Assembly: GCA_024694565.1 (NCBI GenBank)
Contig: JAILJR010000161.1
Location: 1-37,476 of the forward strand
Length of the DNA: 37,476 nt
Direction of reading: 5' to 3'
Source: Butyrivibrio sp.
GTDB lineage: Bacteria; Bacillota; Clostridia; Lachnospirales; Lachnospiraceae
How positions within the stretch are numbered: position 1 is the stretch's first letter; the number at the start of each line of letters is the position of its first letter. Positions 21,585 to 36,097 of the stretch are shown piece after piece. The notes beneath the pieces are model-generated. The model searched no databases, was not told the origin of the DNA, and was given only the letters and a program-made list of their open reading frames with translations. Both the position numbers and the translations under genes were made by a program.

Positions 21585-21686
21585 TGACCTTCCGGGACAG
21601 TTATGGCTTATCTCTAAGGGGAATGTCCAAAGAATGAATATCATTACCGGCATATCGTCGGAAAGGATTTTCACGATATAGCTCTA

Positions 21687-21788
21687 TAGTATCACGGCAT
21701 AGATGGCCGAATTGCCATCATAGTATCATGGCTTAGATAACCGAATAGTCATCATAGTATCACGGCATAGATGACCGAATAGTCATCA
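21687..21788. repeat. Three tandem 34-nt repeats carrying LytTR-type half-sites
   Basis: Units at 21687-21720, 21721-21754 and 21755-21788 begin TAGTATCAyGGC and end in GCCATCA or GTCATCA. They are exactly 34 nt each with a few substitutions; unit 3 is the closest to the shared regulatory motif. Each unit contains the CCGAAT core at the same place (site starts 21705, 21739, 21773). Confidence 0.85.
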
Positions 21789-21842
21789 AAAACGACCAAA
21801 TAGACGAAAAGTGGGACATATAAAAATGCTGCATCATATAAT
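21705..21842 (+). promoter_or_regulatory. LytTR-type direct repeats and promoter of the zinc-ribbon precursor
   Basis: Sites start at 21705, 21739 and 21773 (34 nt apart), then GACCAAATAG at 21794, exactly 21 nt after the last. A -10 box TATAAT lies at 21837-21842, 43 nt from the start of the final site. The 21-nt pair and the 43-nt distance recur at the two other promoters of the system (25415 and 31684). Direct repeats two helical turns apart upstream of a -10 with no -35 are typical of LytTR-type activators. The rest of 21406-21908 holds no gene. Confidence 0.75.
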
Positions 21843-21908
21843 AAGGCAACAAACAAATATTAAAAACAAAGAGCGACAAACGCAAAGTACAAATAGGAGG
21901 AAACATCG

Positions 21909-22241
21909 ATGGAAGAAAACAGATACACACAGTTTATAAGTAAGTCCCGCAATGAGGCAAACAAGGTGGGAAGGAACATTAACACAGAATTATCAGATGC
22001 TGATATGGCAAAGGCAATCGGCGGCCTGGGCGGAAAGAATGAAGCAACCTGTCCTGTATGTGGAAAGCCGATGAAGAAAATAGATAATCCATATGGTGAT
22101 CCGTATTGGACATGTGAGAAATGCAAAGTTGACCAGATCTGCTCCGATGCCGAGTATATTGAGATATTAAAGTTCTGTGAACAGGCGGGACAAACCCAGG
22201 GACTTGTATATCCCGTATGGTGGGACAAGGTTAAGAAGTAA
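21909..22241 (+). CDS. Double-glycine-leader precursor with a zinc ribbon
   Basis: The 110-residue protein begins with a leader ending LSDADMAKAIGG (residues 28-39), which fits the LSxxxLxxxxGG type cut by C39 peptidases. After the GG the mature part has CPVC (48-51) and CEKC (69-72), a four-cysteine zinc ribbon, plus Cys78 and an aromatic C-terminus. AGGAGG lies 8 nt before ATG 21909. The gene sits behind the LytTR-type repeats, and the C39 exporter is encoded 4 kb downstream. It could be a bacteriocin, a signal or a modified peptide. It is also possible that this is a cytoplasmic zinc-ribbon protein with a chance GG, but the shared promoter and the similar leader at 31790 argue against that. 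Confidence 0.7.
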   Translation: MEENRYTQFISKSRNEANKVGRNINTELSDADMAKAIGGLGGKNEATCPVCGKPMKKIDNPYGDPYWTCEKCKVDQICSDAEYIEILKFCEQAGQTQGLVYPVWWDKVKK

Positions 22242-22277
22242 GGAACTGTTTGAAAATTATTTTTTAAACAGGTTCCT
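22241..22277 (+). other. Stem-loop after the zinc-ribbon precursor gene
   Basis: AGGAACTGTTT pairs with AAACAGGTTCCT (one bulged G) directly at the stop codon. The T-run is in the loop, not after the stem, so it is not a standard terminator. It may be an attenuator or mRNA-stabilising element between the precursor and the protease gene. Confidence 0.5.
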
Positions 22278-22386
22278 GGCTGAACAGACAAAAACCCAGA
22301 CAAAAAGAACGAATGGATGAAAAAGATACGTAATGGTCTGCTTTAACGCATTTTAGTTGACGAACATGGAGGTAGCTAACTGCTAT

Positions 22387-23232
22387 ATGGAACAAAAGAG
22401 AGACTTTTCGCTTATAAACTGCTTTTCTTCGGCTATGGTTGTGTATTTTCTTACGATTCCTTTACATGAGATGTTTCATGCACTGACGTATATTGCCTAT
22501 GGCGATAAATTGAGGGTTTTTTCTGCAGGAGCAACAGATAGTATGGGGCTGATAGATCGTGGCAGTCTTCCCTATTTTCACAGGGTCATGTTGGCCGGAG
22601 GAAGTGCATCAATACTCAATGTTATTATCGGTATAGTTCTTATGATTATAGTACTGAAGGCATCAATGGGTCCCACATTGAGAGTGTTCCTGATCCAGCT
22701 TATGGGAGCACAGCTCTCTGAAGGAATTGGATACTTTATGATCGGAGGGTTCTTTGGAGCGGGAGACTGGGGAAATGTATTTTCGTTTTTTCCGGATGAC
22801 AAAGGCTTCGTAACAGTCCTTAGAATTGTCCTCTCACTCGTTGGAGGCTTAGGAATTGTAGGCATTTTTTTCCTTCTGAATCATACGTCTTATTATTTTA
22901 TAAAAGATGTGAACAATCTGCAGGAGAGGAATAGTGTAGGATTTAAGCTTCATCTTACAGTGCTGATCGTTGGATTCATTGTCGGCATGACAATATCTGC
23001 GATGTCGCCCTTTGAAGAATTATCTCTTTTAATTGGATTTCTTTATAACATGGTATGGATTCCATTCTTCTGGGCCTTCATGTTTACCGGGGTCATGAAA
23101 GTATTACCGCCAAAGAACAGTCGTTATTTGTATCCTCTTCCAAAAGAGCCAAACTATATGCTTATAGTAATTGGAGTAGTGCTTATATTAATTGACATAT
23201 TTGTATTTGGTCCCGGGCTTTTCTTTGCATAG
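22387..23232 (+). CDS. Membrane zinc metalloprotease-like protein (M50/DUF3267 type)
   Basis: This protein of about 281 residues has an HExxH site (HEMFH, His27-His31) inside the first hydrophobic segment and about seven membrane helices overall. GAGDWGNVF near residue 130 could supply another metal ligand. Such proteins resemble site-2 protease and DUF3267 zincins that act within the membrane. ATG 22387 has GGAGG 14 nt upstream; TTG 22357 or ATG 22366 are alternative starts. It is the next gene after the zinc-ribbon precursor and likely shares its promoter. Roles such as self-protection, peptide maturation or signalling are possible; none is shown by sequence. Confidence 0.7.
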   Translation: MEQKRDFSLINCFSSAMVVYFLTIPLHEMFHALTYIAYGDKLRVFSAGATDSMGLIDRGSLPYFHRVMLAGGSASILNVIIGIVLMIIVLKASMGPTLRVFLIQLMGAQLSEGIGYFMIGGFFGAGDWGNVFSFFPDDKGFVTVLRIVLSLVGGLGIVGIFFLLNHTSYYFIKDVNNLQERNSVGFKLHLTVLIVGFIVGMTISAMSPFEELSLLIGFLYNMVWIPFFWAFMFTGVMKVLPPKNSRYLYPLPKEPNYMLIVIGVVLILIDIFVFGPGLFFA

Positions 23233-23291
23233 AAAAGTCGTAGATTCGATAAACGGGAAGGGTATATGGTTGCTCAACAGTAGCCCAAGTC

Positions 23292-25250
23292 TCACCCAAT
23301 ATACTTAAATCCCAGCATAGTGATGTCGTCGAACCGGTCTGCGCCAGCCTTGTAATCTTCAATATCTTTTGAAACGCCGCAGAGGATTCCTTCCATGGAA
23401 TCCTCTTTTCTCTTGTTAAGGGATTCCGTCAGACGCTCAAGTCCAAAGGGAGCATCTTCTGTATTTACCGATTCCGGTATTCCGTCCGTATAGACAAAAA
23501 TGCAGTCACCTTTTTCCAACTTAAGTTTGTATTCCTTAATAATAAGTTTCTTCTTGAGTCCAAGAATGGGCGAATGAGGATCTTTGAATAACTCAAAGTC
23601 CTCTCCGGCTCTTCGGAGCATTGGGTATTCATGTCCGGCGTTTGAGCATGCCATGACGCCTGTCTTTAAATCTATGATTCCAAGCCAGGCTGTTACAAAC
23701 ATTTTTTTATCATTGCCATCACACAGGGACCGGTTAGCCATTTCGAGGATGAGGGCAGGAGAGGTCTGCTGTTCGGCGACAGTGCGTATTACGGTCTTGC
23801 TTCGCATCATGAAAAGAGCTGCAGGAAAGCCCTTTCCGGAAACATCTGCAATTACCAGTGCAAGCTTATCCGGAGCAACAAAGAAAAAGTCGAAGAAATC
23901 ACCCGCAACCTCCTTCGCAGGCTTCATGGAGGCAAAGATATCGAATTCCGTTCTGTCGGGATAGGGCGGAAAGCTGCCTGGAAGAAACTGGGACTGAATT
24001 GTTTTTGACAATTCAATTTCGGTGGAGATACGTTGTTTTTCCTGTATTTCCCGGGTTCTTGCCGCCTCATATTCATCAAGCTCTGAGATCATAAAGTCAA
24101 AGGACTTTGACAAAAACCATACTTCATAGCTCTCTGAAACGGAGAGGTTATTAGTTTTTTTCTTATTCCCATCAATGAAAAAATCCTGCATATTACGGGA
24201 AATAGTATAGAAGGGATTGAGAAAAACACGCTCTATCATGTGGTTAAGGACCTGGAGTGTTATAAAAAAGAGCACTATTGCAGGGACGATGTCCCGGATG
24301 GATTGCTTTATGAATACTGCCTGTTGCTGACCGGCATCGCTTGCCAGCTGAAAACCTGCATCAACAGCTTTTTTTGCACTTATTATGTAGATCAAAGGCC
24401 CATAGATAAGCATGGTGACAAGAAGAAGCGTTGAAAAGACTCTGATTATCAGCTCCTTCATCCGAAGTCTCGTTCCATATAGGATGCAGTTGGCGATGAT
24501 TATTGAGATAATTGCAACAGTGTAAGACAGGGCAAAGCTGGAGTTGCCCCAGATAGCAGTAAAAGCGAGGATGGAAGAGATGGCAGGTACGATAACTATG
24601 ATCTTGCGCCATTTTTCAATTCCGGACAGGAATGTCTGAATTATGAGCATAATGAAGGTGGCTAAAATATATATTGATCCTGCAGGATAGGCATAGCCTT
24701 TTAGAAAAACTCCATCTGAATCGATACTAAAGAGCAGTGGCGTGAAGAAATTTATAAGGCAAAGAAGGACCGACGCACCAAGCAGGATCTTCTGAATGGT
24801 CATAAGCCCTGCAAGCTTTGCTTTATCAGTTTTTAGGATTATACAGGCGTGTTTCCAGAAGAGATAGAACAAAATAAACGTTGAAGAGTAAAAACAAGTC
24901 GATGCAAGTATGTTTAGTACACGAAGTGGTCTGCTTCCGCTAAAGAGCCACATCATTGAATCAAAAAGGAATGTAAGCGTGTTTAGAAAAAGAACAAAAA
25001 AGTACTCCGAAGAATTTTTGTTCTCTGTATTGCCCGAGGATAAGTGACCAAAATACAGCATTGAACATACCACTGTCCCAAGAATGTCCATGCTAAGGGT
25101 AAATACGTCAGAAATATCAGCTGTAAAAACAGGCTTCACAAGGGAGATTGCAAGGATCATTGCGGAGATCAAACATACTCCGACAAAACCTGCTCTATAC
25201 AGATCGGGACTTTGTTTTATGAATGCAAATGGATGATTTTTTTCGCTCAT
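23292..25250 (-). CDS. Membrane SpoIIE/RsbU-type PP2C phosphatase
   Basis: The 652-residue protein has about eight to nine membrane helices (roughly residues 15-345), a HAMP-like linker and helix (about 360-425), then a PP2C-type SpoIIE phosphatase domain. Metal-binding motifs are VAGDFFDFF, ADVSGKGFPAALFM, SNAGHEYP, YTDGIPES and DRFDDITML. Such enzymes dephosphorylate STAS-domain anti-sigma antagonists, and a STAS gene lies at 30396 in the divergent exporter operon. The N-terminal membrane part is a likely signal sensor. It is transcribed away from the exporter operon from a 284-nt shared intergenic region. A weak ribosome site (AAAAAAGAA) precedes ATG 25250. Confidence 0.9.
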   Translation of the reverse strand: MSEKNHPFAFIKQSPDLYRAGFVGVCLISAMILAISLVKPVFTADISDVFTLSMDILGTVVCSMLYFGHLSSGNTENKNSSEYFFVLFLNTLTFLFDSMMWLFSGSRPLRVLNILASTCFYSSTFILFYLFWKHACIILKTDKAKLAGLMTIQKILLGASVLLCLINFFTPLLFSIDSDGVFLKGYAYPAGSIYILATFIMLIIQTFLSGIEKWRKIIVIVPAISSILAFTAIWGNSSFALSYTVAIISIIIANCILYGTRLRMKELIIRVFSTLLLVTMLIYGPLIYIISAKKAVDAGFQLASDAGQQQAVFIKQSIRDIVPAIVLFFITLQVLNHMIERVFLNPFYTISRNMQDFFIDGNKKKTNNLSVSESYEVWFLSKSFDFMISELDEYEAARTREIQEKQRISTEIELSKTIQSQFLPGSFPPYPDRTEFDIFASMKPAKEVAGDFFDFFFVAPDKLALVIADVSGKGFPAALFMMRSKTVIRTVAEQQTSPALILEMANRSLCDGNDKKMFVTAWLGIIDLKTGVMACSNAGHEYPMLRRAGEDFELFKDPHSPILGLKKKLIIKEYKLKLEKGDCIFVYTDGIPESVNTEDAPFGLERLTESLNKRKEDSMEGILCGVSKDIEDYKAGADRFDDITMLGFKYIG

Positions 25251-25414
25251 ATTCTTTTTTATCCATGCTGTAATGTGTTGAGGAAACTGTATGTGCTAAA
25301 TAATATGATATCACAGTTCGGAATATCATTCATTGCATCATGAGACGTAATTCCTCAGAACAGGCCAAAAACAAATGCATGTTCGAGAAAAAAATCCCTC
25401 AACCACGCCAAAAT

Positions 25415-25484
25415 GACCGAATAGACATGAAAAACGACCGAATAGATATATCCGGTTTTAATCATCCAGAATTTTGGGTAAGTT
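25415..25484 (+). promoter_or_regulatory. LytTR-type direct repeat and promoter of the exporter operon
   Basis: GACCGAATAG occurs at 25415-25424 and 25436-25445, 21 nt apart. At 43 nt from the second copy is TAAGTT (25479-25484), a weak -10 that keeps only the TA....T positions; TTTAAT at 25483 is an alternative. The remaining part of the 25251-25534 region holds no gene. A 62-codon open frame across it is not considered real because it covers these sites. Confidence 0.72.
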
Positions 25485-25534
25485 TAATACATGATGGGGC
25501 ATTTGTACGAACAATTTGGGAAAGGTAATGAAAT

Positions 25535-26017
25535 ATGGCAAATGAAACCGTATTCAGAGATAAATCCATTGAACGCATCTCATCACCGGAGCAGCTGAAC
25601 GACTATGTCAGGTTGACAGATCCGGGAGTCTGGTTTGTGGTTGCGGCAATAATGATAATTCTTGTGGGAACCTTCATATTTGGAATAACAGGTCATATTG
25701 ATTCCTCGGTTCCCGGAGTATGTATATCCGATGGCAGTAGCGCAGTCTGCCTGGTTAAAAAAGAATTCGGAGACAGGCTTACTGATGATATGCATGTGCA
25801 GGTTAATTCCGCCGAGTACAGTGTTCTGCTGAAAAAATCAAAACCGGTTTCCATTGATCAGACGATTGACTCCTATGCTCTCTTTGTAGGTGACATGGAG
25901 CTTTCTGAGTGGGTCTATGAGATAGAAGTTGAGGGGAATATTCCTGAGGGTGTATATGAAGCCAGACTTGTTACAGAACGGATTTCTCCTCTTTCATTCA
26001 TATTTGGTAAACTATGA
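25535..26017 (+). CDS. Short HlyD-like adaptor of an NHLM-type exporter
   Basis: The 160-residue protein has a short cytoplasmic N-terminus, one membrane helix (about residues 32-52) and an extracellular beta-rich part. The start (SPEQLNDYVRLTDPGVWFVV) resembles the N-terminus of the HlyD-like secretion proteins of NHLM bacteriocin systems, which link the inner-membrane exporter to the outside. It is much shorter than usual and lacks the long coiled-coil hairpin. It has a good ribosome site (GGGAAAGG) and overlaps the exporter gene by 4 nt (ATGA), so the two are translated together. Identification rests mainly on this context. Confidence 0.68.
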   Translation: MANETVFRDKSIERISSPEQLNDYVRLTDPGVWFVVAAIMIILVGTFIFGITGHIDSSVPGVCISDGSSAVCLVKKEFGDRLTDDMHVQVNSAEYSVLLKKSKPVSIDQTIDSYALFVGDMELSEWVYEIEVEGNIPEGVYEARLVTERISPLSFIFGKL

Positions 26018-28197
26018 CAAAAGAGAAAAAGCTTAAACAACCGGTGCGGGGAAAAGTGGCAAAGGTACCTTTTATCATGCAGATGGAAGCTCTGGAGTGC
26101 GGAGCTGCATCCCTTGCCATGGTCCTTGCCTATTACGAAAAATGGATTCCACTGGAGCAGGTGAGACGTGACTGCGGAGTATCAAGGGACGGCTCAAATG
26201 CTCTTTACGTCATGCGCGCAGCCAGAAATTACGGCCTTGAAGCAACAGGCTACCGGTATGAGCCGGATTACCTGAGAGACAACGGAACTTTCCCGTGCAT
26301 TGCCCATTGGGAGTTTAATCACTTTGTGGTGGTTGACGGCTTTAAAAACGGAAAGGTGTATCTGAATGATCCGGCAAAAGGCACGGTGGTCATATCTTTT
26401 GAGGAGTTTGACGAGAAATTTACAGGTCTCTGCATTCTCTTTTCGCCATCAGATAAGTTCGAGCCGGGGGGAAAGCAGAAGTCCACTCTTGAGTTTGCAA
26501 AAAAGAGACTCGTGGGATGCGGTGTGGCTATAGCTTTTGTGGTATCCATGAACATTATTTCATCGCTCATAGGAGTTATCAATCCTGTGTTTTCCAGGAT
26601 TTTCATGGACAGGCTTTTGACCGGTAAGGACCCCGGCTGGCACATACCATTTATTATAGTCATGGCGGCATTTGGCTGTGTTCAGATCACCAGCCTGTTC
26701 ATAAGTACAATTTATTCAAAGCGAATTGAAGGGAAGATGTCGGTTTATGGGACAACTTCGTATATGTGGAAAGTTTTTAATCTGCCCATGGATTTCTTTT
26801 CCCAGAGATATACAGCAGACATTCTCTCAAGGAGATCCGGAAATGCCAGTATATCAAACTCACTGATCTACACTTTTGCACCTCTTGTACTTAATGCCTT
26901 TATGATGCTGTTCTATCTGTTTGTAATGCTTAAGAACAGCGTGCTCCTGACTATGATCGGGATTTCCTCCATAGTGGTCAATATGCTGATCTCCAGGATA
27001 ATTTCTGCCCATCGCGTCAATATATCAAGGATACAGATGCGGGATATGGGTAAACTTTCAAGCTGCACCACGGCTGGAATAGAGATGATCGAGACCATTA
27101 AATCAAGTGGAGCAGAGGATGGTTATTTCCAGAAATGGGCCGGATATCAGGCAAGTGTAAACACTCAGAAGGTGAAGTATGCAAAGCTTAACCAGTATCT
27201 TGGCAGCATTCCGGGAATAGTTTCGGCACTTACCAATACCATAATTCTTGCCATGGGAGTTTATCTGGTAATAAATGGCAGGTTCACCATAGGTATGATC
27301 ACGGCATTTCAGGGATTTTTAGCATCTTTTTCCGCCCCGGCAGCTACATTTATTTCAACAGGGCAGACCCTGCAGGAACTGCGCACAGACATGGAGAGGA
27401 TTGAGGATGTAATGCAGTATCCTGATGACGACAACGGTGCCAATAGATATTCAAATGGCGAGGGTGGTTATATAAAGCTCCGCGGCCGCGTGGAGATGAG
27501 GAACATAACCTTTGGATATTCGAGGCTGACAGATCCTTTGATAAAGGATTTTTCCCTAAAACTTGAACCGGGCAATCGGGTTGCTTTTGTGGGTGAGAGC
27601 GGATGCGGAAAGTCTACATTGTCAAAGCTCCTTTCCGGCCTTTACAGCCCATGGGAAGGGGAGATTTTATTTGACGGCATCCCAATGAAGGAAATTGACA
27701 GAAGCGTCTTTACCGGATCTGTGGCGGTAGTTGATCAGGATATAATCATGTTTGAGGATACAATTTCTTCCAATATAAAAATGTGGGATGAGTCTATTAA
27801 AGACTTTGAAGTGATCGCGTCGGCCAGAGATGCTCAGATCCATGATGACATAATGGCCAGAGAGGGTGGCTATGAGTACAGGATGACCGAGGGCGGAAAA
27901 GACTTCTCCGGCGGTCAGAGACAGAGAATGGAGATCGCCAGGGTCCTGGCACAGGATCCGACAATTGTGATACTTGACGAAGCAACCTCTGCTCTTGATG
28001 CCAGGACTGAATATGATGTGGTTAACGCTATTAAGGAAAGAGGAATCACCTGTATTGTTATAGCACACAGGCTCTCTACCATAAGGGACTGTGATGAGAT
28101 AATTGTGCTTAAGCACGGCGAAGTGGTAGACAGAGGAACCCACGAAGAACTTTATGCAAAAGACGGATACTATAAAGAGTTAGTTCAGAGCGAGTGA
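26014..28197 (+). CDS. C39-peptidase ABC exporter (NHLM/PCAT type)
   Basis: The 727-residue protein has an N-terminal C39 cysteine peptidase (about 15-150) with Gln23, Cys29 in ALECGAAS, His103 in FNHFVVVDGF and Asp119 in LNDPAKG, so the full catalytic set is present. An ABC membrane domain (about 165-450) and an ATPase domain follow, with Walker A GESGCGKST (near 527-535), signature FSGGQRQR (near 631) and Walker B VILDEATSALD. It cuts double-glycine leaders and exports the mature peptide. Likely substrates are the products at 21909 and 31790, both with LSD...GG leaders. It is the core of the exporter operon and forms a pair with the next ABC gene. Confidence 0.95.
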   Translation: MTKEKKLKQPVRGKVAKVPFIMQMEALECGAASLAMVLAYYEKWIPLEQVRRDCGVSRDGSNALYVMRAARNYGLEATGYRYEPDYLRDNGTFPCIAHWEFNHFVVVDGFKNGKVYLNDPAKGTVVISFEEFDEKFTGLCILFSPSDKFEPGGKQKSTLEFAKKRLVGCGVAIAFVVSMNIISSLIGVINPVFSRIFMDRLLTGKDPGWHIPFIIVMAAFGCVQITSLFISTIYSKRIEGKMSVYGTTSYMWKVFNLPMDFFSQRYTADILSRRSGNASISNSLIYTFAPLVLNAFMMLFYLFVMLKNSVLLTMIGISSIVVNMLISRIISAHRVNISRIQMRDMGKLSSCTTAGIEMIETIKSSGAEDGYFQKWAGYQASVNTQKVKYAKLNQYLGSIPGIVSALTNTIILAMGVYLVINGRFTIGMITAFQGFLASFSAPAATFISTGQTLQELRTDMERIEDVMQYPDDDNGANRYSNGEGGYIKLRGRVEMRNITFGYSRLTDPLIKDFSLKLEPGNRVAFVGESGCGKSTLSKLLSGLYSPWEGEILFDGIPMKEIDRSVFTGSVAVVDQDIIMFEDTISSNIKMWDESIKDFEVIASARDAQIHDDIMAREGGYEYRMTEGGKDFSGGQRQRMEIARVLAQDPTIVILDEATSALDARTEYDVVNAIKERGITCIVIAHRLSTIRDCDEIIVLKHGEVVDRGTHEELYAKDGYYKELVQSE

Positions 28198-28201
28198 AAC
28201 T

Positions 28202-30385
28202 ATGGGCTGGTTTGATAATCAGATTAGGCTTAGAAAACAGAATGATGAACGTAGCATTGACAATACTTTCAGGAAAATTGCCGGAGCTGTTACGGGTGAA
28301 ACCGCATCTTCAGCCTTTATGGATGAGAAGGAAAGGAACCAGAGTGCCATTGATGAGATTCTTACCTACTATCATGTCAGAAAGTGCGACATTCCGAAGA
28401 GGATAGTCAAGACCCAGGAAAAGCTTGAGTACGCCCTTCACTCCTCAGGGATAATGTACAGGAGGGTTGAGCTGACGCCGGGATGGCGAAAGGATGCCTA
28501 TGGTGCAATGCTTGGGCGCAGGAAAAAGGATAACAGCCTTGTGGCCCTTCTTCCGTATGGCTTTTCCCGCTATAGATTTTTTGATTATCTGACAGGCAAA
28601 TATGTCATTGTGGATGAAAAAAACGAGTCCCTGTTTATGGCGGAGGCTTTTGCTTTTTACAGGCCCTTTGCACTAAAAAAACTGGGGATCATTGATCTGG
28701 CAAAATATATTCTGAACGTTATAGACACCGCGGATTACATACTTATTGCATTGGCGACACTTGTAGTCACCTTGATCGGCATGTTGACACCCAGGATCAA
28801 TCTGTTTCTTTTCCGGGAAGTAACAGGCAGCGGAGACATATCGCTGCTTATTGTCACGGCGCTGTTTCTTTTGTGTACTTCCTGGGGAGCTCTCATGTTT
28901 GGGGCAGCAAAAAGCCTGATATCTGCAAGGATTGATACAAAGATGAGTATCTCGGTGGAAGCAGCCACCATGATGAGGATACTTTCCCTGCCGGCAGGAT
29001 TCTTTAAGGATTACAGTTCGGGAGAATTGTCATCCAGAGCATCCTACGTAAATTCACTCTGTTCAACACTTGTTACAGTGGTGCTTAGCACGGGGCTTAC
29101 ATCTGTTTTTTCCCTGGTCTATATCACACAGATATTTGAATATGCCCCCGGCCTTGTGGTTCCGGCGCTGTTGATCATATTGATAACGGTATCTTTTTCA
29201 GTTGTATCATCCCTTCTTCAGATGAAGCTTACGAAAAGGCAGATGCTTCTAAGTTCTCGGGAAAGTGGCATGAGTTATGCAGCTGTTTCCGGAATCCAGA
29301 AGATCAAACTGACCGGGGCTGAGAAAAGAGCCTTTTCAAGATGGGGAGATCTATATGCCGGGGAAGCTGCCCTAAGATATAATCCGCCAACGTTTTTGAA
29401 GATCAATTCAGTTTTAAGTTCTGCCATTTCTATTGTCGGGACCATTATCATGTACAACCAGGCAATAGTTACCGGGGTCTCCACAGCACAGTACATTGCC
29501 TTTAATACAGCATACGGAATGGTGTCAGGTGCTTTTATGTCTCTTTTTGGAATGGCACTTACAGCAGCAAATATAAGACCAATCCTTGAGATGGCAGAGC
29601 CGATACTGAAGGCGGAGCCTGAGATATCGGAGAGCAGGGAGACCCTTACCAGGATTTCGGGTGGAATAGAGCTTATCAACCTCACCTTTAAATATAAAGA
29701 GAATTCACCCATCATCATAGACGATCTTTCTCTTAAAATTAATCCGGGGCAGTACGTGGCAATAGTAGGAAAAACCGGGTGCGGAAAATCTACTCTTGTA
29801 AGGCTCCTTCTTGGGTTTGAGAAACCCACAAAGGGCAGTATTTTCTATGATGGAAAAGATATAGCTTCTATTGACCTTAAGTCCCTTAGAAAACACATTG
29901 GTGTGGTAACTCAAAACGGAAAGCTGTTTCAGGGGGATATCTTTTCAAATATAGTAATTGCAGCTCCGCATCTTACACTTGATGATGCCTGGGAAGCAGC
30001 CAGGATTGCCGGTATTGATGAGGACATCAGGCTGATGCCGATGGGGATGCATACACTTATATCTGAAGGAAGCGGTGGAATCTCCGGGGGTCAGAAGCAG
30101 AGGCTCATGATAGCCAGAGCAGTGGCACCAAAGCCTAAGCTCATCATATTTGATGAGGCTACATCTGCTTTGGACAATATTACACAGAAGAAGGTCTCTG
30201 AGGCGCTGGATGAGATGGATTGCACAAGAATAGTGATAGCTCACAGGCTGTCCACGATAAGGCAGTGTGACAGGATCCTGGTATTTGAGGGTGGCCACAT
30301 TGTGGAGGACGGAACCTTTGATGAACTGATAGAACAAAACGGATATTTTGCCAGTCTGGTTGAAAGACAGAGGGTGGATGCATAG
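28202..30385 (+). CDS. Second NHLM-type ABC transporter, no peptidase
   Basis: The 727-residue protein has an N-terminal cytoplasmic region of about 150 residues that is not a C39 peptidase, a membrane domain (about 165-450) and an ATPase domain with Walker A GKTGCGKST (near 522), signature ISGGQKQR (near 627) and FDEATSALD. This matches the second ABC protein of NHLM bacteriocin systems. It lies 4 nt after the C39 exporter gene and probably forms a heterodimer with it, or exports a co-substrate. The N-terminal domain is characteristic of the family but its function is unclear. Confidence 0.92.
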   Translation: MGWFDNQIRLRKQNDERSIDNTFRKIAGAVTGETASSAFMDEKERNQSAIDEILTYYHVRKCDIPKRIVKTQEKLEYALHSSGIMYRRVELTPGWRKDAYGAMLGRRKKDNSLVALLPYGFSRYRFFDYLTGKYVIVDEKNESLFMAEAFAFYRPFALKKLGIIDLAKYILNVIDTADYILIALATLVVTLIGMLTPRINLFLFREVTGSGDISLLIVTALFLLCTSWGALMFGAAKSLISARIDTKMSISVEAATMMRILSLPAGFFKDYSSGELSSRASYVNSLCSTLVTVVLSTGLTSVFSLVYITQIFEYAPGLVVPALLIILITVSFSVVSSLLQMKLTKRQMLLSSRESGMSYAAVSGIQKIKLTGAEKRAFSRWGDLYAGEAALRYNPPTFLKINSVLSSAISIVGTIIMYNQAIVTGVSTAQYIAFNTAYGMVSGAFMSLFGMALTAANIRPILEMAEPILKAEPEISESRETLTRISGGIELINLTFKYKENSPIIIDDLSLKINPGQYVAIVGKTGCGKSTLVRLLLGFEKPTKGSIFYDGKDIASIDLKSLRKHIGVVTQNGKLFQGDIFSNIVIAAPHLTLDDAWEAARIAGIDEDIRLMPMGMHTLISEGSGGISGGQKQRLMIARAVAPKPKLIIFDEATSALDNITQKKVSEALDEMDCTRIVIAHRLSTIRQCDRILVFEGGHIVEDGTFDELIEQNGYFASLVERQRVDA

Positions 30386-30395
30386 GAGGATTTAG

Positions 30396-30695
30396 ATGGA
30401 TTTGACATGGAATGTACAGGGAGAAGATCTCTTCGTTGGAGTCAGCGGAAAACTTGACACCATGAGCGCCATGGATCTTGATGAAAAATTCAATGATATG
30501 CCGGATGAGATCAGAAACATCTATTTTGATCTTGATGGCCTGCTTTACATTGCTTCCGCGGGGCTAAGGGTTTTGTTCTGGGCAAACGAATATACGGAAG
30601 ATAAGGGTGGGACAACCATTCTTAAAAATGTTGCACCGGATATACTGGAGATACTGAAAATAACCGGATTCAAGGACTTCATAAACATTGAATGA
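30396..30695 (+). CDS. STAS-domain anti-sigma-factor antagonist
   Basis: The 99-residue single-domain STAS protein has the strand pattern GEDLFVGVSGKLDT and the loop YIASAGLRVL, where the serine is the usual phosphorylation site. Unphosphorylated STAS proteins bind an anti-sigma kinase and release its target. A SpoIIE-type phosphatase (23292-25250), which could reactivate it, is encoded on the other side of the exporter genes. No anti-sigma kinase gene is in the window. AGGAGG precedes ATG 30396, and the gene follows the second ABC gene after 10 nt. Confidence 0.9.
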   Translation: MDLTWNVQGEDLFVGVSGKLDTMSAMDLDEKFNDMPDEIRNIYFDLDGLLYIASAGLRVLFWANEYTEDKGGTTILKNVAPDILEILKITGFKDFINIE

Positions 30696-30789
30696 AATGT
30701 ATGGATGAGAAAAAGAACTTGCCATTGAAGCAGAATTTATGATTATTGTGAAGACAACTATAGGCTGAAACAAGGTTAAGGTGGGAAAA

Positions 30790-31275
30790 ATGTCCGATTT
30801 ATTAGATATTAAACTGATCATTGATAAAGACTGTAAAAAGCTCAATGTGGTAATAACCAACAATGAGCGCAATGATGATGTGGAGGGAGTAATCTCAGCT
30901 ATCCAGGAATATGCCAACAAGAAAATTCCCATGATTCCGGCGTATTTCAAGGATAGTATGGTTATGTTGCCACAAAGGCAGATATGCAGGATATTCATAA
31001 TCAACAGAAGGGTAGTTGTGGAGACAGCTCAGCGAACCTATGAGGTGAAAAAAAACCTGAGAGAGCTGGAGGAGATGCTGGACAAAGACAGATTTGTCCG
31101 CATTTCCCAGTCTGAGATCCTGAACCTTCGCAAAGTTAAGAGCTTTGACTTTTCTGCAGCGGGAACAATAGGCGTTGAGCTTGAGAATGGCGAAAGTACC
31201 TGGGTTGCAAGAAGAAGGGTGCGGGATGTCAAACAGGCTCTGGCAAGAGGAGGTAATGATGAATATAAAGGATAA
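30790..31275 (+). CDS. LytTR DNA-binding regulator without receiver domain
   Basis: The 161-residue protein has an N-terminal stretch of about 50 residues typical of LytTR proteins that pair with DUF3021, then a LytTR domain (about 56-150) with YEVKKNLRELEEML, FVRISQSEILNL and VARRRVRDVKQAL. LytTR domains bind direct repeats about two helical turns apart, the arrangement seen at 21773/21794, 25415/25436 and 31684/31705. There is no receiver domain, so control probably comes from the membrane partner encoded next. ATG 30790 is preferred over GTG 30781, with AAGGTGGG upstream. The 94-nt gap before it shows no clear promoter. Confidence 0.9.
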   Translation: MSDLLDIKLIIDKDCKKLNVVITNNERNDDVEGVISAIQEYANKKIPMIPAYFKDSMVMLPQRQICRIFIINRRVVVETAQRTYEVKKNLRELEEMLDKDRFVRISQSEILNLRKVKSFDFSAAGTIGVELENGESTWVARRRVRDVKQALARGGNDEYKG

Positions 31276-31693
31276 ATGTATGTTCAGAATGTTACTTGGC
31301 TTTACACTGGGGTTATTGGCCGGAATAGTAATGTATGTACTGGTAATCCCTGACGGGACTGTAATAAATAAGCCCTTTCTGGTTTGTCACCTTCTTGGAT
31401 CAGGCATAGTGGGACTCGTAGGTTATGGTGGAGCTATTGTTTATGATATAGAGAACTGGTCGCTGGGAAGAGCTACTTTTACCCATTATTTAGTTTCCTT
31501 TATGACATTGTTTGTTATCAGCGAGCTGCTGGGGTGGTTTTCACATGACATTTTACTTGGTATGTTTATCTTTTTCACCGCAGTTTATGCGCTTATCTGG
31601 CTGACTGAGTATTATGTCTGGAGGTCGCAGGTCAGAAAAATGAACAAAGATCTTGAGATAATGCTAAAGAGTCACGATAAGGAAACCGAATAG
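31259..31693 (+). CDS. DUF3021 membrane partner of the LytTR regulator
   Basis: The 144-residue protein has four predicted membrane helices (about 8-28, 40-60, 75-97 and 102-125) and a charged C-terminal tail. It belongs to DUF3021. Pairs of receiver-less LytTR regulator and small membrane protein are known as LytTR regulatory systems in streptococci (HdrRM, BrsRM), where the membrane protein holds the regulator inactive. ATG 31259 (or 31256) follows GAGGAGG and overlaps the LytTR gene by 17 nt, so the two are tightly coupled. The 3' end contains half of the next direct-repeat promoter. Confidence 0.85.
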   Translation: MNIKDKCMFRMLLGFTLGLLAGIVMYVLVIPDGTVINKPFLVCHLLGSGIVGLVGYGGAIVYDIENWSLGRATFTHYLVSFMTLFVISELLGWFSHDILLGMFIFFTAVYALIWLTEYYVWRSQVRKMNKDLEIMLKSHDKETE

Positions 31694-31753
31694 ACACGGA
31701 AAACGACCGAATACACAAAGAACATTGAGGCCTTTTATCTTTGCTGATATTAT
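31684..31753 (+). promoter_or_regulatory. LytTR-type direct repeat and promoter of the second precursor
   Basis: AACCGAATAG (31684-31693) and GACCGAATAC (31705-31714) are 21 nt apart, with TATTAT at 31748-31753, 43 nt from the second copy. The first copy overlaps the stop codon of the DUF3021 gene. Geometry is identical to the 21773/21794 site. Confidence 0.75.
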
Positions 31754-31789: not shown

Positions 31790-32056
31790 GTGGCAGATAA
31801 TAAGAATGTTCAGCTGTCAGATGAGGTGTTGCTTGGTGCTACCGGTGGACTTGCAGTAACCGAAGAGAATAAGCCCGACTATGACGCGATCGGATCGGTG
31901 ATCATGCACCTGAGAGAAAAACAGTATCAGGTAAGGTTCGATGACGGTGCGGAACTGATCGCAACTTATCAGTCTGGCGGAGAGGTTTCAGATGGTACAA
32001 AGGTTGGTTTATACGCAGTTGCCGGTGGCTGGACAATGTATGTTTTGGGTAGCTGA
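31790..32056 (+). CDS. Double-glycine-leader precursor, 88 residues
   Basis: The product starts at GTG 31790 (AAGGAG about 9 nt upstream) and has a short leader LSDEVLLGATGG (residues 9-20), closely matching the leader of the zinc-ribbon precursor (both LSD..., GG, then Leu). The predicted mature part has 68 residues, no cysteine, many charged residues and a C-terminus rich in Gly and aromatic residues (YAVAGGWTMYVLGS). It looks like a small beta-rich folded domain rather than a helical class II bacteriocin. It is placed behind the LytTR-type repeat and ahead of a terminator, so it can be made in larger amount than the genes that follow. Function unknown. Confidence 0.75.
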   Translation: MADNKNVQLSDEVLLGATGGLAVTEENKPDYDAIGSVIMHLREKQYQVRFDDGAELIATYQSGGEVSDGTKVGLYAVAGGWTMYVLGS

Positions 32057-32151: not shown

Positions 32152-32979
32152 TTGAGGAAAAAGTTTAAGATCCTTGTTACAGGAAAAAACAGAAGAATTG
32201 CAATGGACATATGTAACCATCTTGCGGTTGATAGGGATTATTCGGTGATCAAATGTGCGGCAAAACCTGACGCTCTGTTGGAGCTTGTTCCCGTAGAGAG
32301 ACCCAGGGTAATAATCATATGTCTGGGAGATGAGAGAAAAGAGACAGTGCGAGCTTTCGATATCCTGAAGGAATGTGCAAAGCTGGGGGCTCTGACCATT
32401 ATCGTTGTGGCAAATCAGGAGGATAAATCTCTTTTTATAAAATACACAAATCTGGAGAAGATGATCTTTTTATCAAGACCGGTATCGTTATTTGCTCTGT
32501 ACGAAAAACTTGAAGAAGAGGAGCGCAGGTATACCAGAGACGATGATGATGACTATTCTATTCTTTCGGAGTATATAAATCCCAATTCAGACAGAGTGGC
32601 TCGAAGACATATTCTCGCAGTTGATGACAACGCTGAACAGCTTTTGCAGATAAAGGAGCACTTAAAGGAGTTCTATGAGGTGACACTTGTGGGATCAGGC
32701 AGGGATGCGCTTAAGTTCCTCAGGAGAAGAAAGGTGGACCTTATCTTACTGGATTATCTGATGCCTGAAATGGACGGGCCTGAAGTGATAAATGAAATAA
32801 GACAGGATCCGTCGCTGGCATCAATCCCGGTAATGTTCCTTACAGGAGTCAAAGAGAAAAGCAAGGTCATAAAAACTCTGGTGGATATTAAGCCTCAGGG
32901 CTATATTGTAAAACCCAGTAAAAAATCTGAACTTGTTGCAAAGATAATCGATGTATTTGAACAGGAGACAGAGGAATGA
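32152..32979 (+). CDS. Tandem-receiver response regulator
   Basis: The 275-residue protein has two receiver-like domains. The first (about 5-125) is degenerate: it lacks the acidic pair and phospho-acceptor Asp but keeps the fold pattern (ILVTGKN, IIICLGD, FLSRPVS). The second (about 152-270) is complete, with AVDDN, acceptor Asp201 in LLDYLMPEMDG, FLTG and YIVKPS. There is no DNA-binding output, so it works through protein contacts or passes phosphate on. TTG 32152 has AAAGGAG about 9 nt upstream. The stop overlaps the Hpt gene by 4 nt (ATGA). Confidence 0.85.
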   Translation: MRKKFKILVTGKNRRIAMDICNHLAVDRDYSVIKCAAKPDALLELVPVERPRVIIICLGDERKETVRAFDILKECAKLGALTIIVVANQEDKSLFIKYTNLEKMIFLSRPVSLFALYEKLEEEERRYTRDDDDDYSILSEYINPNSDRVARRHILAVDDNAEQLLQIKEHLKEFYEVTLVGSGRDALKFLRRRKVDLILLDYLMPEMDGPEVINEIRQDPSLASIPVMFLTGVKEKSKVIKTLVDIKPQGYIVKPSKKSELVAKIIDVFEQETEE

Positions 32980-33578
32980 GCATAGATCTTTCTTTTTTGG
33001 AAGAAAAGGGGATAGATACAAAGCTTGGAAAAGAATATACCGGCGGAACTGAAAAATATCTGTCAGCCTTAAAAAGATATTTTTCCAACTATGAAGACAA
33101 TAGGAAAAAAGCAGAGGATTGTTATGCAGGCGGGGATATAAAGAACTATATGGTTCAGGTACATGCACTTAAGAGTAACTCCAGAATGGTCGGCGCCATA
33201 AGTCTTTCAGAAGAATTTGAGGCCCTTGAAAAAGCGGCATCAGAGGGCGATATCTCATTTATTGCGGCCAACGGGGAAAAGACATTATCAAGGTACGGTG
33301 AGCTTGTGGAGTTATTAAGACCTATTGGTGAAGCCGAAATTGAGATGCCTGCTAACGAGATTACCGGCGGGGAAGCACTTCTTTTGTCAAAAGAACTGCT
33401 GGAGGCACTGGATGATTATGATGAAGAGAAATCAGCTGAACTTGCAAGAAAACTCTCGGGATATCCTTTCAGGCTTCGCCAGCGGGGGGAAATGAATCGT
33501 GCCATAAAGCTGATATCTGATTTTTGCTACGACGATGCTGCGGAAATAATAAAAGAGATCTCTGAGACTATTGAGTGA
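32976..33578 (+). CDS. Hpt phosphotransfer protein
   Basis: The 200-residue protein has an N-terminal Hpt four-helix bundle (about 20-115) with the phosphorylated histidine His63 in VHALKSNSRMVGA. The C-terminal part (about 125-200) is helical and resembles the accessory domain often found after Hpt in such operons. It should carry phosphate between the hybrid kinase's receiver and the tandem-receiver protein. It overlaps the preceding gene by 4 nt, and the kinase gene follows after 20 nt, so the three act together. Confidence 0.88.
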   Translation: MSIDLSFLEEKGIDTKLGKEYTGGTEKYLSALKRYFSNYEDNRKKAEDCYAGGDIKNYMVQVHALKSNSRMVGAISLSEEFEALEKAASEGDISFIAANGEKTLSRYGELVELLRPIGEAEIEMPANEITGGEALLLSKELLEALDDYDEEKSAELARKLSGYPFRLRQRGEMNRAIKLISDFCYDDAAEIIKEISETIE

Positions 33579-33598: not shown

Positions 33599-36097
33599 AT
33601 GAAATATATAAAGACTGCTCTTTCCGTGATGATTGTTACTGTCTTTGCTTATATAGTGATAGGTGAATTTGTTTTTCCTGCTAATGTTCCCAGGGATGGA
33701 TTTATATGTGAGATGTTGCCAAGTGACAACTGGGAAATTATCATGGAAGATGGTAGCAGGAAGCCCTTTACACTTCCGGGAAGAGTACAGGAGGATGTGG
33801 TGCTTCAGACAACCCTTCCGGCCTCATTCGACAAGAAGGTGACTGTCCTGTGTTTCAGAGGCATGGACATGAGAGTTTTTATCGGGGATGAACTGCGCGG
33901 AAAGCTTGTAACCGAGGACTATGCAATTTTTGGGGACCGCTCGGCGGAGTGCTATCTTATGGTTCCGCTGTATCAGGAGGATGCGGGGAAGTGCTTACGC
34001 ATAGATTATGAATACAATTCAGGTTTTGTGTATGAAGTCTATTATGGAACATGGCTTGGTATCTGGGCACATCTCTTTTCTCAGTATGGAGCGGAGCTTT
34101 TTGTAGGTATCATTATAATGTCACTGGGCTTAATCTGCTATATCGCGTCTGTTACCTACAGGATAATCTATAAACAGTACCTGGAGATGCAGCATCTATC
34201 CACGGGTGTACTGCTTGGAGCCTGCTGGGTCATGTCCAATTCTGTGTTCAGACAGTTTTACACAAGAAATATATCTGTTATGTCTGATATACCATTTCTT
34301 ATGGTCATGCTTCTGCCAATTCCATTTCTGGTTTTTATCGATTCTCTTCAGAAGGGGCGCTATACAAAGCTCATCACTTTTGCAGGTGGATTGGAAATAC
34401 TGGACTTTGTGGTTTTGATAGCTCTTTTTATAAGCGGAAGAGTACCTCTGGTTAAAAGCTTTGTGGTCGCTGCATCCTGTTGTCTTGTATGCATAGCTGT
34501 CATGAGCTATACCATCATAAAAGATTCACTTGAGGGATATACAAAGGAATATGAATATGTGGCTGTGGGCTTTGTGGTTTTGGCAATGGCTGCAGTTGGC
34601 CAGATCCTGGCATATATCTTTGCTCACAATGGTGTGTTTTCGGGACTTTTGATGGCGATAGGTCTCCTGGGGTTTCTCATATGCGCATCAATTCACACGA
34701 TCAAGCAGCTTATAGGCTTACGACTTAAAGCCAATGAAGCTACCAGTGCCAATCAGGCGAAGGATCAGTTTTTGGCTAATATGTCCCATGAGATCAGAAC
34801 ACCCCTCAACGGGATTCTTGGGATGGATGAGATGATCATCAGGCAGACCAGGCAGAGCAATATTAAAAAATACGCGCTGGATATAAAGAGTGCAGGAAAT
34901 ACTCTTTTGGCCCTCATAAATGACATACTCGACCTGTCCAAGATCGAAGCCGGAAGCTTTGAGATAATTCCCGCAGAGTACAGCATTACATCTGTTCTGA
35001 ATGATGTTATCAATATGACCCGGCACAAAGCTGTGGCAAAGGATATTGAGTACATTTTTGAAGTGTCACCCGAAGTGCCCGGGGTCCTGTACGGGGATGA
35101 GCTCAGGGTAAGGCAGGTGATGCTGAATATAATTAATAACGCCATAAAGTATACAGAAAAAGGTCATGTAAAGATTGAGGTCAGCGCCAATAATGACCAT
35201 GATGCCTCTGATGGTGGTTCTATACTCATGGTGAAGGTTTCCGATACAGGCATGGGAATTAAGAAGGAGGATATGGATAAACTCTTTACCAGCTTTCAGA
35301 GGCTTGACGTAAAGAAAAACCGGTCAATAGAAGGCACAGGTCTGGGACTTTACATCACTCACAGGCTTTTGGAGCTGATGGGCGGAAGGATAGAAGTGGA
35401 CACCAAATATGGCCAGGGAAGTACTTTTACACTAATAATTCCGCAAAAGGTCGTTGATGAGCATCCCATAGGTGATTTTTGTGATGCTGTGAGCAAATTT
35501 ATAAGCAATATGGAAGTTGAAGAAACAACGCTTTATGCACCGAATGCGAAAATCCTTATTGTTGATGATAATCAGATGAACCTTGAAGTGATGGAGGGGC
35601 TCCTGCGGGAATCAAAGATGAAGATTGATCTGGCTCTTTCCGGAAACGAGTGCATAGAGAGGGTCCGCGAAAAGAACTATGATATCGTTCTTCTGGATCA
35701 GATGATGCCCGGGATGAATGGCGAAGAAACTCTGCAGTCCATGAAAGAGAATGGATTGATCGGAGATACTCCTGTCATAGCACTGACGGCAGATGCCATA
35801 CTTGGTGCAAGAGAAAGCTATATATCCAAAGGCTTCACAGATTATCTCAGCAAACCGGTTAAGTATGAAAAGCTTGAGGAAGCCTTTAAGAAATATCTTC
35901 CAGAAGAAAAGCAGCTGGTAAAACCAAAACAGGAAGAGGAACTGCCTGTTCTTTTGATATGGGGAATGGACTCGGACAAGCTAAGGGAGACAAAAGAAAA
36001 ATTGTCTGAGCATTATAGGTGCACATGTGTTGTGGGAAGTAAGGCAAGAGATAAATTCCTGGAGAAGCATGAAGTCGATGCTGTGATGCAGGTGTAG
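33599..36097 (+). CDS. Hybrid sensor histidine kinase (7TM-type), C-terminus frameshifted
   Basis: The 832-residue protein has one N-terminal helix, an extracellular sensor (about 27-165) and about seven membrane helices (170-375) in a 7TMR-like layout. These are followed by HisKA with His397 in MSHEIRTPLNG, HATPase with INNAIKYTE, DTGMGI and GTGLGLYI, and a receiver with VDDN and Asp700 in LLDQMMPGMNG. A second receiver-like domain then starts (VLLIWGMDSDKLRETKEKL) and stops after VDAVMQV. One added G after 36088 would extend the frame to TGA 36166-36168 with AGVADVKDMMDGGTLEWEF, so the last domain is probably broken by a missing base or by the rearrangement that follows. It would feed the Hpt and tandem-receiver proteins upstream. 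Confidence 0.88.
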   Translation: MKYIKTALSVMIVTVFAYIVIGEFVFPANVPRDGFICEMLPSDNWEIIMEDGSRKPFTLPGRVQEDVVLQTTLPASFDKKVTVLCFRGMDMRVFIGDELRGKLVTEDYAIFGDRSAECYLMVPLYQEDAGKCLRIDYEYNSGFVYEVYYGTWLGIWAHLFSQYGAELFVGIIIMSLGLICYIASVTYRIIYKQYLEMQHLSTGVLLGACWVMSNSVFRQFYTRNISVMSDIPFLMVMLLPIPFLVFIDSLQKGRYTKLITFAGGLEILDFVVLIALFISGRVPLVKSFVVAASCCLVCIAVMSYTIIKDSLEGYTKEYEYVAVGFVVLAMAAVGQILAYIFAHNGVFSGLLMAIGLLGFLICASIHTIKQLIGLRLKANEATSANQAKDQFLANMSHEIRTPLNGILGMDEMIIRQTRQSNIKKYALDIKSAGNTLLALINDILDLSKIEAGSFEIIPAEYSITSVLNDVINMTRHKAVAKDIEYIFEVSPEVPGVLYGDELRVRQVMLNIINNAIKYTEKGHVKIEVSANNDHDASDGGSILMVKVSDTGMGIKKEDMDKLFTSFQRLDVKKNRSIEGTGLGLYITHRLLELMGGRIEVDTKYGQGSTFTLIIPQKVVDEHPIGDFCDAVSKFISNMEVEETTLYAPNAKILIVDDNQMNLEVMEGLLRESKMKIDLALSGNECIERVREKNYDIVLLDQMMPGMNGEETLQSMKENGLIGDTPVIALTADAILGARESYISKGFTDYLSKPVKYEKLEEAFKKYLPEEKQLVKPKQEEELPVLLIWGMDSDKLRETKEKLSEHYRCTCVVGSKARDKFLEKHEVDAVMQV

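What the first reader, a model, noticed from the sequence alone, without database searches (positions are those of the whole stretch)
21705..31753. Three promoters share a 21-bp direct repeat with fixed distance to -10: a LytTR regulon inside one locus
GACCGAATAG-like pairs occur at 21773/21794, 25415/25436 and 31684/31705. Each pair is spaced exactly 21 nt, and TAnnnT boxes (TATAAT, TAAGTT, TATTAT) sit exactly 43 nt after the start of each second copy. I found no other copy in the window by eye. The three promoters precede the zinc-ribbon precursor, the exporter operon that includes the LytTR gene, and the second precursor with the phosphorelay. LytTR proteins are known to bind direct repeats two helical turns apart. 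Inference: the LytTR protein at 30790 activates all three and itself.
Basis: partly seen in the sequence, partly recalled or inferred. Interest (0 to 1): 0.9.

Follow-up and report, generated by a model that had tools for sequence, protein, structure and literature searches.

The report
LytTR switch governing rumen peptide export
In a genome grouped with rumen Butyrivibrio, three predicted promoters of one peptide-export gene cluster and two more on other contigs carry the same paired 9-letter DNA signal at a fixed distance from a promoter-like box; the signal is likely read by the cluster's own LytTR regulator, and the same signal stands before related regulators, exporters and predicted export peptides in many other, mostly rumen, bacteria.

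Summary
The repeats are real: 3 pairs in the window against 0.03 expected, each 21 bp apart with a -10-like box at +43. The geometry (9-12-9-10-[-35]-17-[-10]) is that published for LytTR Regulatory Systems (LRS), and the gene pair fits: a receiver-less LytTR protein followed by a DUF3021 membrane protein. Two more sites lie on other contigs before genes whose double-glycine leader resembles that of the window's second precursor. A model built from this genome's five sites finds 26 hits (E<=0.01) in the other 78 genomes of the genus; 24 lie on a contig with a homologous LytTR gene. In 80 related loci, 74 half-site pairs sit at 21 bp, at most 4 at any other distance from 9 to 60. Newer: sites also precede genes of a HK-HPt-receiver phosphorelay. 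Against: three genomes have strong sites without a close LytTR relative. Binding, activation and inhibition by DUF3021 are untested.

The parts
21686..21788 (+). 34-bp tandem array, 3 copies, with extra half-sites at 21706 (GCCGAATTG) and 21740 (ACCGAATAG)
   Evidence: Tandem Repeats Finder; half-sites
21774..21803 (+). P1 direct repeat ACCGAATAG-12-ACCAAATAG
21837..21842 (+). P1 -10-like box TATAAT, 43 nt after the second GACC start
21909..22241 (+). precursor A: double-glycine leader, then a CxxC...CxxC zinc-ribbon-like domain (110 aa)
   Evidence: sub-threshold Pfam match Zn_ribbon_recom E 8e-4
22357..23232 (+). hydrophobic protein with an HEMFH motif, M50-like by recall; no family match
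23292..25250 (-). SpoIIE-type phosphatase, divergent from P2
   Evidence: Pfam SpoIIE 155 bits
25416..25445 (+). P2 direct repeat ACCGAATAG-12-ACCGAATAG (perfect)
25479..25484 (+). P2 -10-like box TAAGTT (TAAAAT in relatives G328 and G363)
25535..26017 (+). short secretion protein, N-terminal part of the NHLP HlyD family
   Evidence: TIGR03794, positions 1-70 of 421, below cut-off
26014..28197 (+). C39 peptidase-ABC exporter
   Evidence: TIGR03796 896.2 bits (cut-off 853.3)
28202..30385 (+). second export ABC protein
   Evidence: TIGR03797 710.1 bits (cut-off 709.4)
30396..30695 (+). STAS protein
   Evidence: Pfam STAS; TIGR00377
30790..31275 (+). LytTR regulator without receiver domain (161 aa)
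   Evidence: Pfam LytTR 73 bits, residues 56-151
31259..31693 (+). DUF3021 protein, predicted membrane inhibitor; its stop codon TAG lies inside the first half-site of P3
   Evidence: Pfam DUF3021 78 bits; start codon read
31685..31714 (+). P3 direct repeat ACCGAATAG-12-ACCGAATAC
31748..31753 (+). P3 -10-like box TATTAT
31790..32056 (+). precursor B: double-glycine leader, 88 aa, no family
32152..32979 (+). response regulator with no DNA-binding domain found (RR2)
   Evidence: Pfam Response_reg
32976..33578 (+). HPt-like protein
   Evidence: Pfam Hpt E 8e-5, 23.2 bits, just below the cut-off of 24.6
33599..36097 (+). hybrid histidine kinase
   Evidence: HisKA, HATPase_c, Response_reg

Best explanation
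The three 21-bp-spaced repeats are likely binding sites of the receiver-less LytTR protein encoded at 30790, which together with its DUF3021 partner likely forms a LytTR Regulatory System (LRS) predicted to switch on its own exporter operon, the predicted double-glycine precursors A and B with the phosphorelay, and two further precursor genes on other contigs. Inferred mechanism: DUF3021 holds the LytTR protein inactive at the membrane; an unknown signal relieves this; LytTR dimers bind the two half-sites on one face of the DNA, 10 bp upstream of a weak -35 box, and recruit RNA polymerase; because P2 would also drive the LytTR gene, the switch feeds back on itself. The C39 exporter would then cut and export every precursor that carries the matching leader. 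Shown: sites, spacing, -10-like boxes, gene content, motif conservation and co-location with LytTR. Inferred: binding, polarity, inhibition, signal, and export of the precursors.
For: Chance excluded in the window. Exact matches only in the window in 3.47 Mb. LytTR and DUF3021 families. LRS geometry: 9-bp repeats mostly 12 bp apart, strong bias to 10 bp before -35, 17-bp spacers in several; window values 9/12/9/10/17. Two new sites on other contigs, each upstream of a precursor gene, both with TATAAA at the offset deduced from the window. Model R1 built from this genome's 5 sites: 26 hits at E<=0.01 in 12 of the other 78 genomes of the genus, 24 of 26 on a contig with a LytTR homolog of E<=1e-20; 11 of 17 other genomes with such a homolog have a site against 1 of 61 without, Fisher p 1.8e-8, not corrected for kinship. 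Sites directly before LytTR with no C39 exporter in the fetched 20 kb (G326, G369, G332) and on a 3.5-kb contig (G372). 80 loci: 83 sites in 56 loci, 0 for the reversed motif; 30 sites lie 100-184 nt before LytTR; TAnnnT from the second ACC in 38 of 81 at +42 and 22 of 81 at +41, against a mean of 2.2 over offsets 10-34 and 12 or fewer at every other offset from 30 to 59.
Against: No binding, expression or start-site data. Strong sites occur in G041, G079 and G233 (other genera), before double-glycine precursors or signal-peptide-like proteins, yet no close LytTR relative was found there (best 22% and 29% identity in G041 and G079; nothing in the one fetched G233 locus). G041 has a weak DUF3021 match beside its LytTR, so an LRS of another branch; G079 and G233 have no DUF3021 match. 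Gaps in these assemblies or a diverged LytTR could explain it. 24 of 80 LytTR loci show no site at the threshold used, and 6 of 18 genomes of the genus with a LytTR homolog have none at E<=0.01. A LytTR-only protein can be a repressor (BlpS, PMC8545106, passages). -35 boxes are weak. The assembly is about 82% complete, so another LytTR gene may be missing.
Confidence: 0.85

Rival explanations
1. The LytTR protein binds these sites but represses, or competes with an activating LytTR response regulator, as BlpS does in Streptococcus gallolyticus.
For: BlpS is LytTR-only and represses by binding the same 30-bp motif as BlpR (PMC8545106, passages). A second LytTR gene, apparently a response regulator beside a histidine-kinase-like gene (by eye), exists on contig C185.
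Against: BlpS lies in an operon with the two-component system that it antagonises, unlike LRS regulators; here the partner is DUF3021, a domain of LRS membrane inhibitors. The sites lie 10 bp upstream of the -35 position, as in LRS that activate. No R1 hit at E<=1 on C185.
Confidence: 0.1
2. Another, unrecognised DNA-binding protein reads the sites; LytTR merely lies nearby.
For: G041, G079 and G233 have sites without a close LytTR relative. RR2 and the STAS protein are also linked to sites, but no DNA-binding domain was found in them.
Against: Sites occur at LytTR-DUF3021 loci that lack the other genes: of 34 loci with a site and at least 5 kb on both sides, 25 lack the C39 exporter and 11 lack any phosphorelay gene (loci were gathered through LytTR, so LytTR itself is present by design). 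In the genus-wide scan, which was not gathered through LytTR, 24 of 26 hits are on LytTR contigs. The 9-12-9 geometry is that of LytTR sites.
Confidence: 0.1
3. The repeats are a non-regulatory tandem or mobile repeat that happens to lie before three genes.
For: One site lies at the edge of a 34-bp tandem array.
Against: No tandem array was reported at the other two sites; one spacing with a -10 peak over 80 loci and position before gene starts are not expected of a mobile repeat.
Confidence: 0.02

Closest known systems
LytTR Regulatory Systems, LRS (HdrRM, BrsRM and others, Streptococcus mutans; PMC6193735, passages only)
   Same: Receiver-less LytTR regulator in an operon with a DUF3021 protein; 9-bp repeats ACC...TA 12 bp apart, 10 bp before -35; control of bacteriocin genes as well as of their own operon.
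   Different: Half-site ACCGAATAG instead of mostly ACCxCTTAx; the operon also holds a C39 export system; sites also before double-glycine proteins and phosphorelay genes; 'phosphorelay' and 'histidine kinase' occur 0 times in that paper's main text.
BlpRH/BlpS of Streptococcus gallolyticus (PMC8545106, passages)
   Same: LytTR-only protein acting at a shared motif just upstream of -35 of bacteriocin and related operons, some of them unlinked.
   Different: BlpS represses and lies in an operon with a classical two-component system that answers a secreted peptide.
NHLP-type bacteriocin export systems (TIGR03794/03796/03797)
   Same: C39-ABC and second ABC protein above their curated cut-offs, HlyD-like partner gene.
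   Different: HlyD partner is only the N-terminal part (160 aa); the two window precursors match no NCBIfam family.
MAM-PCAT of Faecalibacterium duncaniae (PMC12184118, passages)
   Same: A double-glycine leader on a protein proposed to be exported by an adjacent C39 transporter.
   Different: LytTR occurs 0 times in that paper's main text; the leader motif given there differs.

Membership tests
LytTR Regulatory System (LRS) | LytTR regulator without receiver domain | tested here: met
   Only Pfam LytTR, residues 56-151 of 161
LytTR Regulatory System (LRS) | adjacent membrane protein with DUF3021 or DUF2154 | tested here: met
   DUF3021 78 bits in the next, overlapping gene; hydrophobic segments; DUF3021 homolog within 1.2 kb in 76 of 80 related loci
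LytTR Regulatory System (LRS) | paired ~9-bp repeats 11-13 bp apart just upstream of -35 of the own operon | tested here: met
   P2 ACCGAATAG-12-ACCGAATAG, 10 bp before the -35 position; directly before LytTR in relatives. That P2 transcribes through to LytTR is inferred from gene spacing.
LytTR Regulatory System (LRS) | membrane protein inhibits the regulator | not testable with these tools
   needs a DUF3021 deletion
LytTR Regulatory System (LRS) | positive autoregulation through the repeats | not testable with these tools
   needs a reporter assay
NHLP-type export system | C39-ABC and second ABC subunits | tested here: met
   TIGR03796 896.2 (cut-off 853.3); TIGR03797 710.1 (cut-off 709.4)
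NHLP-type export system | full HlyD-type secretion protein | tested here: not met
   only positions 1-70 of 421 match, 36.1 bits against cut-off 156.2
Receiver-LytTR two-component regulators (AgrA, BlpR type) | N-terminal receiver domain | tested here: not met
   no Response_reg match in the 30790 product

The most novel reading that the evidence does not exclude
In rumen Lachnospiraceae one LRS lineage with its own half-site (ACCGAATAG) has become the master switch of a surface and secretion programme: it turns on a C39 exporter, a dispersed set of small double-glycine domain proteins, signal-peptide proteins, and a HK-HPt-receiver phosphorelay whose receiver lacks a DNA-binding domain and acts back on the LytTR-DUF3021 or STAS-SpoIIE switch, so that an LRS and a phosphorelay form one circuit. 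The promoter motif then finds the exported proteins without any knowledge of their sequence.
Probability: 0.3. Interest if true: 0.75.

Novelty: new variant of a known kind. Interest (0 to 1): 0.55.

Why it matters
The 2018 LRS paper counts more than 4600 putative LRS operons but says that the only characterised examples are those of Streptococcus mutans (PMC6193735, passages). Here the regulator, its likely site, its likely targets and an export machine can be read together in one small region, and the motif points to targets on other contigs and to double-glycine proteins in other genera (G041, G079). It offers a promoter-based way to find exported small proteins that lack recognisable families, and a testable link between an LRS and a phosphorelay.

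Tried and rejected
Reading the sites as a tandem-repeat artefact was rejected: an array was found only at P1, while 21-bp pairs recur in 56 of 80 loci. Looking for sites on the contig of the second LytTR gene (C185) gave none at E<=1. Identifying the precursor folds led nowhere: the precursor B model is too poor (pLDDT 49) and the precursor A model (pLDDT 70.5) has no Foldseek match in PDB at E<=0.001; the best PDB sequence match for B has E 0.031, to a designed protein. My idea that precursor B is OB-like and C SH3-like is recalled and was not shown. The simple pattern with 2 mismatches is too loose for genus-wide use: in most of the 79 genomes it is, by eye, no commoner than the backwards pattern, this genome being an exception (8 against 1), so the 69-nt model was used; its genus and family scans scored at most 64 and 17 candidates per genome with stricter filters, so weak sites may be missed. 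Weak family hits in G063, G097 and G157 looked like chance; the one in G040 precedes a lipoprotein-like ORF and stays open; those in G049, G077 and G103 were not inspected. A literature search for the half-site letters gave 155 papers; the 10 listed are unrelated by title.
Full report
OBSERVATION. Each is spaced 21 nt and each has a TAnnnT box 43 nt after the start of the second copy. ACCGAATA-N13-ACCGAATA with up to two mismatches occurs three times in the window; shuffled windows give 0.03 on average. In the whole assembly (3.47 Mb, 249 contigs, about 82% complete) the pattern has three exact matches, all in the window; one further match has 1 mismatch (C232) and four have 2 mismatches, of which C165 shares the linker GAAAAACGACCGAATA with C232. 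With up to 3 mismatches the pattern is no commoner than its reverse (57 against 79), so only the best matches count.

THE TWO NEW SITES. C232:1493 and C165:3698 (minus strand) each precede a hydrophobic ORF of 60-81 aa and then a precursor of 88-93 aa whose leader (MTENRNxELNDEMMAKATGG) resembles that of precursor B (MADNKNVQLSDEVLLGATGG). Both have TATAAA at the offset deduced from the window sites. All five sites align without gaps over 69 nt. Since the assembly is in pieces, it is not known how far these contigs lie from the window.

GENES. Order on the plus strand: precursor A (double-glycine leader, CxxC...CxxC), a hydrophobic protein, [SpoIIE phosphatase on the minus strand], then P2 and a close-packed run: HlyD-like, C39-ABC, ABC, STAS, LytTR, DUF3021 (gaps -4, 4, 10 and 94 bp; the last two genes overlap by about 17 bp from the ATG read), then P3 with precursor B, a receiver protein, an HPt-like protein and a hybrid kinase. 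The stop codon of DUF3021 lies inside the first half-site of P3. The assembly holds one other LytTR gene, of 234-aa frame, beside a histidine-kinase-like gene on C185.

WHAT IT MATCHES. The published LRS consist of a LytTR protein without receiver and a membrane inhibitor, four of the five S. mutans ones with DUF3021 or DUF2154, and have 9-bp repeats mostly 12 bp apart with a strong bias to 10 bp upstream of -35 (PMC6193735, passages). The window has 9-12-9-10-(-35)-17-(-10) at all three promoters, though the -35 letters are poor. The half-site ACCGAATAG differs from the common ACCxCTTAx form chiefly in the middle; relatives show mixed forms such as ACCGAATAG with ACCGCTTAG in G369 and ACCACTTAG with ACCGAATAG in G316.

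OUT-OF-SAMPLE TEST. A sequence-only model R1 was built from this genome's five sites alone and run over 79 genomes of the genus (at most 64 candidates scored per genome). In this genome it finds only the five training sites at E<=1. In the other 78 genomes it finds 26 hits at E<=0.01, in 12 genomes. 24 of the 26 are on a contig that carries a LytTR homolog with E<=1e-20; the exceptions are G359:C37 and G354:C11 (G354 has such a homolog on another contig). Of the 17 other genomes with such a homolog 11 have a site; of the 61 without, 1 has (p 1.8e-8; relatedness not corrected). All 7 other genomes with a LytTR at 64-85% identity have one. In G326, G369 and G332 the site stands directly before LytTR-DUF3021 and no C39 exporter like the window's was found in the 20 kb fetched; in G372 it does so too, on a contig of only 3.5 kb. 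So the site goes with the regulator rather than the exporter.

FAMILY-WIDE FOOTPRINT. A profile search of named genomes kept the best 80 of 269 LytTR loci, from Butyrivibrio, Oribacterium and other, mostly rumen, Lachnospiraceae. In 1.28 Mb, half-site pairs at 21 bp number 74; every other distance from 9 to 60 has at most 4; the reversed motif has none at 21. 56 of 80 loci have at least one site, 83 sites in all; 24 have none at that threshold. 37 sites lie within 1 kb before LytTR on its strand, 30 of them at 100-184 nt. TAnnnT from the second ACC peaks at +42 (38 of 81 unique sites; 22 at +41; mean 2.2 over offsets 10-34; the next highest between 30 and 59 are 12 at +44, 11 at +43 and 11 at +36). 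These loci were collected through LytTR and overlap in part with the genomes, so LytTR is over-represented by design. Genes after the 83 sites by simple rules: LytTR 28, DUF3021 5, exporter genes 5, precursors like B or C 6, other small double-glycine ORFs 4, receiver RR2 3, hybrid kinase 2, STAS 1, the 60-aa hydrophobic ORF 3, N-terminal signal or membrane segment 14, other 8 (three look like flagellins, by eye), none 4.

PHOSPHORELAY. Of the 51 loci with at least 5 kb on both sides of LytTR, 24 carry all three of RR2, HPt and hybrid kinase and 29 carry one or more; 9 carry the C39 exporter at 40% or more. Sites stand directly before RR2 in three loci (L172, L234, L241). Of the 34 such loci with a site, 11 have no phosphorelay gene and 25 no exporter; of the 17 without a site, 6 have a phosphorelay gene. 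So neither is needed for the site. That the phosphorelay acts on the LRS is a proposal only.

PRECURSORS. Homologs of the C-type precursor (E<=0.01) are found in 3 of 79 genomes of the genus: G000, G328 and G363. Precursor B has 30 and precursor A 46 homologs in the protein collection, B without and A almost without Pfam domains. In G328 five sites (E<=0.01) occur in about 20 kb, one with three half-sites in a row at 21-bp steps. What the predicted exported proteins do is unknown.

AGAINST. In 299 genomes of the family (at most 17 candidates scored per genome), 12 have a hit at E<=0.01. Outside the genus the genomes with hits at E<=1e-4 are G041, G112, G079 and G233. G112 has a 41% LytTR with a perfect site 184 nt before it. 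G041 and G079 have the site before double-glycine precursors and G233 before signal-peptide-like proteins, but no close LytTR; G041 has a weak DUF3021 match beside a 22% LytTR, G079 and G233 have no DUF3021 match. Some of these sites lie on short contigs or near contig ends; a missing piece or a diverged LytTR is possible, and so is another reader of the sites. LytTR-only proteins can repress (PMC8545106, passages).

LITERATURE. 'DUF3021' occurs in 3 papers held; 'LytTR' with 'DUF3021' in 2. The Hungate1000 bacteriocin survey has no mention of LytTR or NHLP in its main text (PMC13289728, passages). Among the papers listed by the searches none describes this regulon, judged by titles and abstract starts apart from the four papers read in passages; only open-licence papers were searched. 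The LRS paper names Butyrivibrio fibrisolvens among its examples.

VERDICT. A real motif set with the marks of an LRS regulon, with a distinct half-site, a dispersed set of likely export-peptide targets and a phosphorelay that appears co-regulated. Binding and polarity need the bench.

Noticed in passing
window 21686-21788: 34-bp tandem array with half-sites at 34-bp steps just upstream of and into pair P1; the last unit also holds the inverted repeat GATGAC...GTCATC.
   Followed up: partly
L155:8640 (minus) = G328:C2:23639: Three half-sites in tandem at 21-bp steps before a double-glycine precursor, divergent from another site.
   Followed up: partly
L178:2752, L184:9876, L219:5637 (minus strands): Sites before ORFs that look like flagellins (by eye), suggesting a link to motility in some relatives.
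   Followed up: no
L157:9555, L112:10960, L122:12366, L158:235, L159:4940: Sites before signal-peptide-like proteins, several with CxxC or CxH motifs (by eye); half-sites ACCGTTTAG or ACCGCTTAG in some.
   Followed up: partly
L255:692, L256:111, L257:8147 (G041, G079): Sites before double-glycine precursors in genera where no close LytTR was found.
   Followed up: yes
L171, L172, L176, L177: Two LytTR genes of this family lie close together.
   Followed up: no
window 20615-21405 (minus strand): A nucleoside phosphorylase-like gene (PNP_UDP_1, matched to position 153 of 233) appears broken into overlapping ORFs.
   Followed up: no
L023:2624-4361 (C232): Transposase-like ORFs (by eye) lie just downstream of the precursor C gene.
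   Followed up: no
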